NCBI GenBank assembly: GCA_030248225.1
Contig: JASANE010012564.1
Coordinates: forward strand, 1 to 64,000
DNA: 64,000 nt
Direction of reading: 5' to 3'
Source of the DNA: Trileptium ribeirensis
Taxonomy: Eukaryota; Nematoda; Enoplea; Enoplida; Thoracostomopsidae
A program made the position numbers and the translations under genes. The number at the start of each line of letters is the position of its first letter. Position 1 is the first letter of the stretch. This document shows, piece by piece, positions 7,401 through 13,400 of the stretch. The notes under the pieces were generated by a model. It was given only the letters and a program-made list of their open reading frames with translations, was not told the DNA's origin and ran no database searches.

Positions 7401-10400
7401 CCGCCTCAAATTTCTGGCTTTTATTTTTAACGTTAGATTTTGATGTAACTGTTGCCATACGCATAAAGTCAAAAATGAGAACAGAGTTTTCTTACATCTA
7501 CAGCTACAACTTTTGCTTTCTGTGAAAGCATTTGCTTCTGAGTTATGACCCGGTGTCTAGAAATACTTCCAAAAGTGAGAATTTTAACAATGTGAATTTA
7601 TTGCTAGTCGCTGTGACGATGGGGTTATATATACATTTTGATTTAAACTACATTAGGTCCAGCAAAAATTTTTTCGGTCCACGTAAAAATATTTGGGTCC
7701 AGACCAGGGAATAACCGGAACCGGAACCAGCAACCGGAACCGGGTCTTCGAAATTTATATATAGTGAAACAGATAATGGAAGAAATGAAGGTATAGTGGA
7801 TTTAAAATGCATTAAAAATAACTTTTTACATTAAACTTAATGTATTGCGATGGTATTCTTGCCTTTCTGAAACTTTAAAGATACTGAGGAAGCTAATACT
7901 GTTTATTTATCGATCAAATATGTCGGCTTTTGGACATTCAGAGCAAAAAATATCTTCCACTATACACCATTGCGTATACTGCGCCAAGTCGAATGTGCTT
8001 ACAAAGCTTGGAGCGTAGAATACACTCTTTCGCTCTGTCTCCAGTCGCCTCCCTTTACTACACATACGTTTGTTGCATGTTCTTCTGTAGGAAACTTAAA
8101 ATTATTGGTTTATATGATTCTAAGAGAAAATAATAGATAGAAGGTAATTTTCTGATCAGTGGTCAGAGACACTGGTTAGGCTAGCATTGGACAAACAGTG
8201 CACGTCATTTAGATCATGATGATGATAACTTTCTAATCAGGATGCTATAAATGAGACACACTGTGATGCTGCTCGCATAGTTTCAATAAATACAGTTCAT
8301 TGCCAAGAAAGTAGTTTCTAGCAGCGTTGCAGATAACGTTAGTTTACTTCAATTTAGACTGATTTACCAAGTTTACAAGCGCACTGGCGGGTGCTTGACG
8401 CAATTTATGTTAACCAAACATACCCTAAGTACTTCTGCGTAAGCCATACTCTGTTACCGAGTTGGATCGGTTTAATTCAAACTTATCCCACAGAGTTCGG
8501 GATTTGTAAAATAGCTGCTACAAGCATCGACATGGCTTTGATTTAACAAACTCCCGCAGGTTATTATGAAAAATTCCAGCTCAAATTATGTGCCCTACTT
8601 ACGTTTCACACGGCAAATTGGTTAGTTAATCTTTTCTTTTGCTTGGTTGTATTGGAGCTTGATCATTGTACAAGCGGAGTATCGGCGTTTCCCGGTGTGC
8701 GTTGAAAATTTTTCGTCCAGGTACATGGATGGACGCATTTTTGAGCACCGTCGCCAAAATTGAAATGATACCAACACCAACTGCCATTTGGTTTAAAAGT
8801 TCGGTTTGCGGAAGGGGACCGAAAATTTCGGTATCTCTTCCGATTATGGCTACCTTCCTGACTGCTCATTTGATCGTTTTGATACTTGTTTTTAGAATAG
8901 GGGCGACTTTGGCGCCAACTATTTTTACCGCTCCCGGAGAACTGCAAAGCTCGCACTGATTTTGTTAGTTCAGCGACAATGTGTGATAGTTCATCTAGTT
9001 GGGTACTGTTGTTTTCGAAAGTTGAGCTTTTCATCTGGTTAACTTGATTATTTGAACTAGACGGTACTAGCTGTTCCATTATTTTATCTCCCAAGTCAGC
9101 TAATTTTTCAATTGTAGTGTCTTCGACTACCGCCAGAGCGATGCGAACTTGTTCCGGTAAAATGTCTAAAAATCGCCACTTTACCAAATCCGGCTTATTT
9201 GGTGCGAGTCTCTGCAATTGTCTGAGAGCAACCGATGGCTTGCGGTCACCCAGTGTTTGCTCCGCCAACAAATTTTTGAGCAATTTTTCTTGGCTTAGTC
9301 CATAAAATTTTAAAATACAATCTTTGAATGCAGCATAGTTATCTGTAGTTTTAATTCCGCAATCGTTCAAAACATTTGTTGGTAGAGCTTTCAAGAGGCT
9401 ATTTCGTTTGGCATTTTCGGATTTTCCTTCTAATAGTGGTTCAATTTGAGTGAACCAGACTTTCGTGTCTTTTTCGTAAAAATCCGGTAAATTGGGCAAT
9501 CGGTCATTTTCGGTCTGAGCGGGTCCGGCGTTTTGTTGATTTACGCCGTTTTGAACTAACTTAATTGCCATTTTGACGACGGACGGTTGATGCCGATTTA
9601 ATGCATCGACTATCAACCGTTTTGTTTCTGGCATTATGAAATTTTGATCGTCTTCGTTTATCATTTGCAGCGCTTTTGTCAGCGTTTCTCTATCCAGATC
9701 CTCCAAATTTGGTGGGCCTGGATTTGGTTCAATTCCAGTAATGATCAGAAGTAGTCTCAAACTCGATGCATGCCGCGCGCTCAACATGGAGTTGGTTAAA
9801 TTAAAATGACTTGATGTCTCAAACGCACCATCCAAATCTGTAATGAGACTAGTTTTGTCCGGTGTACTTGCGCCGTTTGTGTGAAGTGGTAACGAAATCA
9901 AAATTGATGCGCTAACGAGTAATGCAAATGATACATGTAACGTGTGTGAAACAGTGAATGTGTTTAATGATCTAAACTTGGACACTTGTTTTATGCACTT
10001 GTTCTTAGTATTTTGTGGACAATTTAATTGTTTTGCACCTTGGTTTGCACCTTTTGATATTTTGTTTGGTAATATGACTTTGCACAAAGTTTGTGAAACT
10101 GATGAACTCCAGTGGAGTTTATCCATTTGAAAATTTACGTTGGTTTTTTTGTGGAATGACCATCGTGAAAATTGGTAGCAAATATTTGTTTTCGTTTTTG
10201 AAAGCAAGACTGTACTGCGACGGGGAAAATAATGCTTTTTCTTGACTGGTTTTGAGAGTTCTGAAAAATCTTCTTTTTGAGAGTTTTTGAACATAGTTTA
10301 GTAGATTTTCCCCGAATAAAATTACAGTCTTGCAAAATTCTGGTTGCGGCTGAATTTATGTGTCTGAATCGATCAGACCCCAAATGAATGCCGCCGTACC

Positions 10401-13400
10401 ATCTCGTTACAATAACGAGGACATTTTGTGCGTTTGCAGTGTGTAAAATTCGAAGTAAACGGGATCCTGCTCCGTTTTCACCGTCATCAGCAAAATCAGA
10501 ATGCATCACACCGTCTTCGGTGAAAATCCGGTACGCGTAAATATTATGGGTGGCTGCAGCTATTTTTTTGTTTGTTTTGAGTCCGTTAAGTACATGCTTA
10601 ATTAAAATTGGGTCGTGAATTTCTGCTGCATGTACCTGGAATGTGCTCTTACGATCTGAAAACGGTACACTTGAAAACAACTCTGTTTCGGACGCCTCAA
10701 ACAGGTACCGCGAACCTGGGTTGTTAGCTTTGGAACCACTTTTGGCAGTTTGAATTGGTCCGGGATTAGATTCTATATCCCCAGAAACCAGCAATAATAA
10801 TCGTAACATCGAAGCGTGATTACGGTTGAGATGTAAAATGTTAAATCGAACATTGTTTTTTTGGGCATAGATCATTAAATTTAATTTAGCATGTGTTTGG
10901 CTTAGCTTCAATGAAATTGACAAAAAACAATTTTTAGTGAAGTTCCCATTGCTTTTAAGAATAACAAGCAATTGAATGAAAAATATAGAATATTGGAACT
11001 TCAAAATAGTTTTCCGTTTTTTTCGCCAACTTAGTTTCGGCTTTGTTTTTCGATGATACTTGTAACCGGCACAGGATATCAAATGTCCACTATACGCCAT
11101 CAGTTCGACCATCGTCCATAAAATTGACAATCCGACTGCGGTAGCTAAGAAAACAGTCGACGCTCGCCGTCGCCGAATGTTCATCGATGTTTGTTGTTGA
11201 CATATGGTCGTATTGAAATCGTCGGAAACATGGGTTGTGTGGTTGCGAAGGCTGCTTGTTTGTGCGGGTTCACCAATGTAGGTCACATTTGTTTGTCCTA
11301 CGGAGCTTTGATCTCCAATAAGTGTAAGTATATGCACTGTTTTACTATAGTTATAAACAACCAGTGTTAACTGACATAATAATTGAGTATTGTAAAACAA
11401 CGTCAGCATGATAACAGGTTTATTCGACAGAATGAATAAATATCGTTTTTTTACACAATGATATTTCACCAAATTCTCCTTCAGAAAAATCACGAAGCAC
11501 AATAACAGCTTTGAACAGCTGAAAAAATAAAATATATCAAAATTCAAGAACAAAAGGAAATGACAAATATACAGTGAATTGTAATATATTTCCCACAAAC
11601 AATGGAAGCTACAGCGAGGTCGCCGAGCGAAGCGTTTTTATTTTCTGTCGGGGAGCAAAAAAGTCGATGTCCGTTCGTCCGTTAGTCTTTCATGGATCTC
11701 AAGAACCACTGAACCTAGTTCAAAAAACTTTGTTTATTTGAAAGCTTATCATGTGAGGATGTGCACCTGATATTTTAGAAGTTTGGCAACTTGCCAATCT
11801 TATCATTAATTAAGCTAATTAGCTAATTAACATCCTAATTAAGCTCATAACAGCTTAATTATTGGTCGTAGAGTCGTTTTAACGGCATATACTTTGAATT
11901 TTCCATGGGGAAATAAGAAAATAGATGCATTGTACATACAGGAATAGTATAGGCAAAATTATTTTCAGACTGCGTGTCCTATGATTTCATTGCTGTGCTT
12001 CGATTACCATTCATCACCATGCTGTATAAGCCACGTGACTTCCTTTGTCTTGCTTTGCGTTCGAACGGAATAAAACTATTCTTTCATTTACTCATTGTTG
12101 TCTAAGTAATAATATATTCCCAAGACATTGAGTACGTTCATATTACTAATGCCGTCGCTCCGCTCAAAAAATGTAGTTCTACTACGACTGGTATATATTA
12201 CATATGTTTGGATTACAGTATGAAGCAAAAAACGTGGAAAATTTCAAACAAAATTTTTAGACCGGAATTCCGGTTCCGGTATAGTTTTTGCCCTTTGCCG
12301 TAACCGCAACCGGAACACGACTTTCGCCGGAACCGGAATTCCGGTTACTCCCTGGTCCAGACCCACCTGTGGACCCAAAAAGCCTTGTATACATGTTGCT
12401 GCCTCTCTGTGACGACTCAGCCTTTTCTATATGCTTTTTTTGGCACTAAAACAGCCTCACAAGCTTGTTTTCTCTTCTGTGTTCAACAAATAGAAATGTA
12501 CATCTTGTTTTGTTAAATTTAATACATATCATGTGACGCAACATACATGTTTAAAGGGGTTTAGTGTATATCATGTTTTTAAATTATTGTCTGGAAATGT
12601 GAAACGTGTTTTTGATGGATTCACTGGATTATTTTGTTTTAGGGTTTTGGTAAGCAAGTGTTTCAAATTTACTGTTTTTCCACAGGTTTTATTGCTTACG
12701 TGTTTTCGATGTGTTTATGAGTGGTGATGATGATGAAGACAGTAGCCGTCCTTGAACATGCTGGAACTACAACTAGTGGAGTTGTAGTCGCGGATAAGTG
12801 GTTACCACAACTGGGTCGTTCCATAGGCTGTGAGTGTTGTCGGTTTTGCGAGCAGTCTCCACATTCGGAGCACAGATTCGAGATAGAAGGATCGAACCTG
12901 CTCATGTAGGAGTTTACTAATCTGAGATGTAGCTCATTCTAAATTGCGCCAACGGAGACTGTTCTTTTCGGTGGTACTTACAGGAGGCCGGTAGCCACTG
13001 AGTACTGGGTTTGGTTTGTATTCGGCATTCGCGTCGGTGACTGCAGCGCGGTGTAGTTGGTAGTTCTCGTAGTCCGTTTTCAGTGGTTCATCATTCAATG
13101 TATTTTCCTTCGAAAATTAGTGAGTGGTGTCACTCCGGTTTGCTTTTTGGGTCCACGGGTGGGTCCAGGCCCAACTATTTTTTTAACCTGACCCAAGCTG
13201 GAATTAGTAAGATATTTGCGTAAATTTTGGTTTATATCGCCGTAGTTTGACAAAATTTTTCACAAAAGTAAATTTCGTAAATCTAAAAATTTTAATTTCT
13301 TTTTTCCTCATAATTCTCCGCAATCTTTCCTCATCATTTAGCTCTATTGATACAATGTTTCGCGATATGCGTAAACTGGTATGTGTAACCACTAAAATTT

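What the first reader, a model, noticed from the sequence alone, without database searches (positions are those of the whole stretch)
8670..12190. IMPACT/YigZ domain behind a 2A-like peptide, paired with a 2A-gag ORF inside a hAT element
Seen: two long overlapping - strand ORFs, the first with DIESNPGP then AATHNIYAYR, DDGENGAG and VTRWYGGIHLG (IMPACT/UPF0029), the second with a 2A-like motif and a Gypsy Gag. Known: 2A motifs occur in some invertebrate retrotransposons, and IMPACT counters GCN2-driven translation arrest through GCN1. Inference: a retroelement (or the hAT that captured it) may have recruited a translation-stress regulator, released from its leader by 2A skipping. I am not aware of this architecture being described.
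Basis: partly seen in the sequence, partly recalled or inferred. Interest (0 to 1): 0.9.

Follow-up and report, generated by a model that had tools for sequence, protein, structure and literature searches.

The report
Retrotransposon carrying a captured IMPACT domain
A family of jumping genes in this genome carries one half of a cell's translation-control protein, IMPACT, between two predicted ribosome-skipping signals in front of its coat protein, and another class of jumping genes elsewhere carries the same half, which gives a way into a protein domain whose job is still unknown.

Summary
The two overlapping ORFs are one frame-broken ORF1 of a Ty3/Gypsy-type element. In 9 of 28 other loci one open frame holds 2A - IMPACT (UPF0029) - spacer - 2A - Gag; Pol follows, usually in -1. 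The genome has 101 UPF0029 matches. Of 29 loci examined, 26 keep the first 2A, 25 the second, 23 both. IMPACT is under purifying selection (omega about 0.05). It marks one Gag group: 55 of 65 Gags at 47% identity or more, 3 of 81 below. Separately, 19 LINE-type ORF1 proteins elsewhere end in the same domain. Neither kind carries the RWD half that binds GCN1, so the GCN2 reading lacks its usual basis. No hAT was found. The window copy lacks Pol. My searches of an open-access library found no description. Function is inferred: a ribosome- or RNA-facing helper of the element's own translation or RNP.

The parts
11241..11568 (-). LTR-like stretch, remnant of the 5' LTR
   Evidence: 68-70% blastn matches to the LTR pairs of L022 and L011 and to L025
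10135..11637 (-). first ORF, 500 aa stop to stop: LTR-derived start, membrane leader, first 2A, IMPACT domain
10756..10806 (-). first 2A-like peptide, LRLLLLVSGDIESNPGP
   Evidence: place computed from the ORF
10336..10653 (-). UPF0029 / IMPACT ancient domain
   Evidence: Pfam 2.1e-29; genome search 6.0e-28; predicted fold matches Yih1, TTHA1053, YigZ; pN 0.062 against pS 0.552 to the copy L009
10135..10297 (-). overlap of the two ORFs in which the reading frame of ORF1 is broken
   Evidence: tblastn of the open L009 ORF1 passes from one frame to the other here
9896..9952 (-). hydrophobic, transmembrane-like segment of the spacer
   Evidence: Kyte-Doolittle 1.73 over 19 residues
9713..9760 (-). 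second 2A-like peptide, LRLLLIITGIEPNPGP
   Evidence: place computed from the ORF
8663..9715 (-). Gag, open to its stop; no Pol follows in this copy
   Evidence: 65% identity to the Gag of L020 over 262 residues; DUF7041 sub-threshold; no Pol hit in the window

Best explanation
The locus is a truncated, frame-broken copy of a Ty3/Gypsy-type LTR retrotransposon family whose ORF1 is a polyprotein: a membrane leader, a 2A-like peptide, the ancient domain of IMPACT, a basic linker with one transmembrane-like segment, a second 2A-like peptide, and Gag; Pol (protease, RT, RNase H, integrase, often PWWP) follows in an overlapping frame. Shown: the domain order in many copies, its restriction to one Gag group, and purifying selection on the IMPACT domain. 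Inferred (about 0.85): ribosomes skip at both 2As, so one ORF gives three proteins, a leader, a membrane-tethered IMPACT protein and free Gag. Inferred (about 0.4): the ancient domain works through its own invariant surface, not through GCN1, as a ribosome- or RNA-facing module that helps the element translate its 2A-rich mRNA or build its RNP; that LINE elements attach the same domain to their RNA-binding ORF1 protein points the same way.
For: 101 UPF0029 matches in the genome, some of them pieces of one copy. One open frame with both 2As and IMPACT in 9 of 28 other loci; 26 / 25 / 23 of 29 loci keep the first, second, both 2As. Pol frames over 900 aa with YxDD and HHCC motifs in 7 of 20 loci; RT, RNase H and integrase by Pfam in 4 of 4 Pol frames tested, PWWP in 3 of 4. 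LTR pairs at 11 of 20 loci, 87-100% identical, two of them 100%. Omega 0.051-0.055 for IMPACT (17 copies) against 0.068-0.073 for Gag (9 copies). IMPACT upstream of 55 of 65 Gags at 47% identity or more and of 3 of 81 below. Spacer transmembrane-like segment in 13 of the 16 loci looked at. A GIESNPGP 2A is listed at about 99% activity in PMC8623073 (passage), so the GIExNPGP form of the second 2A is plausible. LINE ORF1 with the same domain: 19 proteins. Invariant ATHN, DDGE and RWYG residues shared by Gypsy, LINE and host domains.
Against: No 2A activity was measured and no function tested. The window copy has no Pol and a broken frame. In one young pair (L017/L023) pN/pS is near 1, on very few changes. 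One of six gag-pol overlaps is +1, not -1. In the Gypsy elements the second 2A would separate IMPACT from Gag, which speaks against a Gag-bound role there, while in LINEs it is fused. Transmembrane segments rest on hydropathy alone. Omega rests on saturated synonymous sites; the RT comparison failed to run.
Confidence: 0.75

Rival explanations
1. GCN2 brake: the element's IMPACT domain dampens GCN2 activation set off by stalled ribosomes or element expression, for example by masking an RWD surface in trans.
For: Full-length IMPACT/Yih1 inhibits GCN2 and associates with ribosomes (passages of PMC7140605 and PMC10931611); 2A peptides pause ribosomes (PMC11512398, passages).
Against: The RWD half, which binds GCN1 and suffices for inhibition when overexpressed, is absent; the ancient domain's function is called unknown. 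That an ancient domain could mask an RWD surface is my recollection of work on Yih1 that I could not open.
Confidence: 0.2
2. Structural passenger: the domain serves only as a stable folding spacer between the two 2A peptides, without a partner.
For: It sits between two 2As at a steady distance.
Against: Omega about 0.05 and invariant surface loops exceed what a spacer needs; 6 of 7 fetched IMPACT-less relatives do with one 2A and no such domain.
Confidence: 0.12
3. Host IMPACT gene family or domesticated genes that happen to lie beside elements.
For: The domain is host-derived by descent (tree).
Against: Copies share frame with 2A and Gag, are bounded by LTR pairs, and have no RWD match on their contigs.
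Confidence: 0.03
4. One capture passed between LTR and LINE elements rather than two captures.
For: Holding the Gypsy and LINE domains together is not rejected (AU p 0.076).
Against: The best tree keeps them apart: Gypsy one side of a branch at 93/92, LINE at 100/99, with the nearest row to Gypsy a nematode host protein at weak 87/76.
Confidence: 0.2

Closest known systems
Retrotransposons with captured DNA methyltransferases (PMC5890265; abstract and outline seen)
   Same: Host regulatory domain taken into the coding region of distinct retrotransposon classes in unrelated lineages.
   Different: Domain acts on DNA methylation; the abstract names no 2A. Here a translation-regulator domain between two 2A-like peptides.
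Orchid Ty3/Gypsy elements with an AlkB m6A demethylase (PMC9289625; abstract and outline seen)
   Same: A Gypsy-type element with an extra host domain, an RNA-level function shown in vitro.
   Different: Separate extra ORF in 25-kb plant elements; here in frame in ORF1 with 2As.
2A-like peptides of non-LTR retrotransposons and sea-urchin NLR proteins (PMC4981915, passages)
   Same: D(V/I)ExNPGP after a hydrophobic leader; in the NLRs the 2A doubles as a signal sequence.
   Different: The passages speak of non-LTR elements and NLRs; here the 2As stand in ORF1 of an LTR element, twice, around a captured domain.
IMPACT / Yih1 and bacterial YigZ (6bqi, 2cve, 1vi7)
   Same: Same ancient domain by sequence and predicted fold.
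   Different: IMPACT/Yih1 have the RWD domain in front; the element has none.
LINE-1 ORF1p (2yko, 2ykp)
   Same: The LINE-type relatives share its coiled coil, RRM and CTD order by predicted fold.
   Different: They add a C-terminal IMPACT domain; not found in this genome.

Membership tests
Ty3/Gypsy LTR retrotransposon (defining features recalled) | Pol order protease - RT - RNase H - integrase | tested here: met
   RT, RNase H, integrase in that order in 4 of 4 Pol frames tested of related copies; protease domains only below cut-off. Not in the window copy, which has no Pol.
Ty3/Gypsy LTR retrotransposon (defining features recalled) | paired LTRs and short target-site duplication | tested here: met
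   LTR pairs at 11 of 20 loci; a clear 5-base duplication at 2 of the 9 whose flanks were printed. Window: one LTR-like stretch only.
Ty3/Gypsy LTR retrotransposon (defining features recalled) | RT places with Ty3/Gypsy in a tree | not tested
   No reference RT set was at hand; no clade name is given.
UPF0029 / IMPACT ancient domain | Pfam PF01205 over cut-off, conserved motifs, fold | tested here: met
IMPACT / Yih1 GCN2 regulator | RWD domain that binds GCN1 | tested here: not met
   No RWD match in the window ORFs or in the 5 related ORF1s scanned that carry UPF0029, besides the window's; 3 RWD matches in the genome, none on a contig with a UPF0029 match.
2A peptide | D(V/I)ExNPGP or known active variant | tested here: met
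   First 2A fits in the window; second is GIEPNPGP, a form close to the listed active AGIESNPGP.
2A peptide | ribosome skipping | not testable with these tools
   needs a translation assay
hAT transposon | transposase or enclosing short inverted repeats | tested here: not met
   (41 of 49 ORFs scanned; decayed or non-autonomous hAT not searched)

The most novel reading that the evidence does not exclude
The ancient half of IMPACT is by itself a translation or RNP module useful enough that an LTR lineage and a LINE lineage each took it without the GCN1-binding half; the LTR lineage makes it as a membrane-tethered protein freed by two 2As, acting on the ribosomes that those 2As stall.
Probability: 0.2. 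Interest if true: 0.92.

Novelty: new variant of a known kind. Interest (0 to 1): 0.76.

Why it matters
The ancient domain of IMPACT/YigZ is found in prokaryotes and eukaryotes and papers seen here call its function unknown. Two kinds of retrotransposon that keep this half alone, under strong selection in the LTR case, are natural experiments on what it does without RWD. The elements also put 2A-like peptides in ORF1 of an LTR retrotransposon, in tandem, which the passages and searches here know only from viruses, non-LTR elements and NLR genes (none found).

Tried and rejected
hAT: no domain in the 41 ORFs scanned. Programmed frameshift between IMPACT and Gag: the frame change is -1 in the window and +1 in L012 by my reading of the coordinates, and 9 of 28 loci need none, so decay is likelier. 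Leader homology, to tell which 2A is the older: only L041 is clear; L042-L044 have best scores just over, L045-L047 under, the 99% point of shuffles, so the order of gain is open. Host IMPACT gene of this genome: not found; 3 weak RWD matches off the UPF0029 contigs, and the search with a spider IMPACT did not complete. Phylum of the genome: the SL1 search did not complete. Viral contigs: no match with Pol; one with the IMPACT alignment, L040. Phages: no match for the L040 domain, two records for the window domain; PHROGs none. Homologues of the whole ORF1: one unrelated protein. LINE identity by sequence profile alone is weak: LINE-1 ORF1p at E 0.0096, below several coiled-coil chains; the predicted fold settles it better. 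RT selection test failed.
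Full report
What is there. On the - strand of the window, 10135-11637 and 8663-10297 are long overlapping frames. The first carries a 2A-like peptide and UPF0029 at E 2.1e-29; the second a 2A-like peptide and a Gag-like protein. Open frames from related copies match across both, passing from one frame to the other in the overlap, so they are one ORF1 with a broken frame. LTR-like sequence lies at 11241-11568. No Pol match lies in the window, so the copy is truncated.

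The family. The genome (687 Mb, unnamed) has 101 UPF0029 matches at E 0.001 or better, some of them pieces of one copy. I examined 29 loci: the window, the 20 next-best loci and 8 of lower rank picked for long or split frames, so 29 loci against 101 matches. The first 2A is present in 26, the second in 25, both in 23; the misses are L019, L026 and L039 for the first and L010, L019, L025 and L036 for the second. The first lies 33-102 bases before the domain, the second 504-740 after it; one other ExNPGP occurs in 218,437 bases read in six frames. L010's second motif reads HPGP. In 9 of 28 loci besides the window a single open frame holds both 2As and the domain. The D-type 2A pattern occurs 250 times in the genome against 5 for its reversed control.

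Behind ORF1, 7 of 20 loci have a Pol frame over 900 aa with RT and integrase motifs. Pfam finds RT, RNase H and integrase in 4 of 4 such frames, and PWWP in 3 of 4. In 5 of 6 overlaps Pol lies in -1, in one (L010) in +1; all 6 overlaps hold a GGGAAA[ACT] heptamer, whose phase I did not check. LTR pairs were found at 11 of 20 loci, 87-100% identical, two of them 100%; a clear 5-base target duplication at 2 of the 9 whose flanks were printed. The family has therefore moved recently as well as long ago.

Selection. Over 17 copies the IMPACT domain gives omega 0.051-0.055, Gag over 9 copies 0.068-0.073; the RT run failed. Window against L009: pS 0.552, pN 0.062. Synonymous sites are saturated in most pairs, and one very young pair (L017/L023) shows no constraint on a handful of changes. 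ATHN, DDGE and RWYG are kept in Gypsy, LINE and host domains.

Gain. Of 146 scored Gag copies (of 1052 candidates, so a lower bound), those at 47% identity or more to L020 have a UPF0029 match within 3 kb upstream in 55 of 65 cases, the rest in 3 of 81. Of 7 fetched loci without it, 6 have one 2A directly before Gag; L041 has both 2As and no domain, which I read as loss. L013 holds a further relative without it. So 2A before Gag is wider than IMPACT, and IMPACT came in, probably once, in one group. Which of the two 2As is the older is open.

Membrane parts. Hydropathy marks a transmembrane-like segment between IMPACT and the second 2A in 13 of 16 loci looked at, and one or more in the leader of several. 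This is a prediction by hydropathy alone.

LINEs. A search with the related domain gave 85 proteins. By sequence and alignment 19 of them are LINE-type ORF1 proteins with a C-terminal IMPACT domain (P0005-7, 12-15, 17-23, 26-28, 33, 90); P0017 is cut within the domain and P0027 and P0090 have odd ends. Most other hits are listed with RWD and IMPACT together; I fetched 26 sequences, not all 85. A profile finds LINE-1 ORF1p only at E 0.0096, after coiled-coil chains. The predicted fold of P0005 (coil, RRM, CTD, IMPACT) matches Yih1 at 3.8e-8 and LINE-1 ORF1p at 4.6e-7. Their contigs could not be read, so an ORF2 behind them was not seen. In this genome a LINE-type query matches only through the IMPACT part (93 matches, none starting before query residue 298).

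Tree. With 17 Gypsy, 17 LINE (P0017 and P0090 left out) and 19 host rows, Gypsy is one side of a branch (93/92) and LINE another (100/99). Forcing both together is not rejected (AU p 0.076, 50 rows). Two captures are favoured, not proved.

Function. 2A peptides of the first form are the canonical motif (PMC4981915, passages); a GIESNPGP form is tabled at about 99% activity (PMC8623073, passage). So three separate products are likely. In Yih1, GCN1 binding rests on RWD, and the ancient domain's function is called unknown or elusive (PMC4503747, PMC7140605, passages). The element has no RWD. I therefore prefer a reading in which the ancient domain acts through its own conserved face at the ribosome or on RNA, and keep the GCN2 reading as a rival. 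None of this was tested.

Literature. Searches for IMPACT domain or UPF0029 with retrotransposon found nothing, and those for 2A with Gypsy gag found one review and one unrelated paper. The library is open-access only. The nearest parallels are PMC5890265 and PMC9289625 (abstracts and outlines).

Noticed in passing
window 16442-17573, 23653-24820, 25673-26851: A repeat of about 1.1 kb in three direct copies, 81-84% identical.
   Followed up: no
window 32780-33919: Staggered overlapping frames at 208-base steps on the - strand, which looks like a tandem array.
   Followed up: no
one of the 41 scanned window ORFs: An ISXO2-like transposase domain (PF12762, 4.8e-9); the table does not say which ORF.
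   Followed up: no
L009, L014, L020 Pol frames: A PWWP domain at the C-terminus of Pol.
   Followed up: no
L040:1-369: A bare 122-aa UPF0029 protein at the edge of a predicted prophage contig, a terminase-like ORF further along by my reading; it may be a host gene at the boundary.
   Followed up: partly
P0016: A sea-anemone protein (Actinia tenebrosa) with two IMPACT domains behind PF18738.
   Followed up: no
P0002: A cockroach protein (Periplaneta) with IMPACT at the end of a different, charged N-terminal part, no RWD found.
   Followed up: no
L042:3-2783: An IMPACT-less relative with a very long leader rich in short cysteine-containing repeats before its single 2A.
   Followed up: no
G000: 250 D-type 2A patterns genome-wide; the list was cut at the first places, and some may belong to other elements.
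   Followed up: partly
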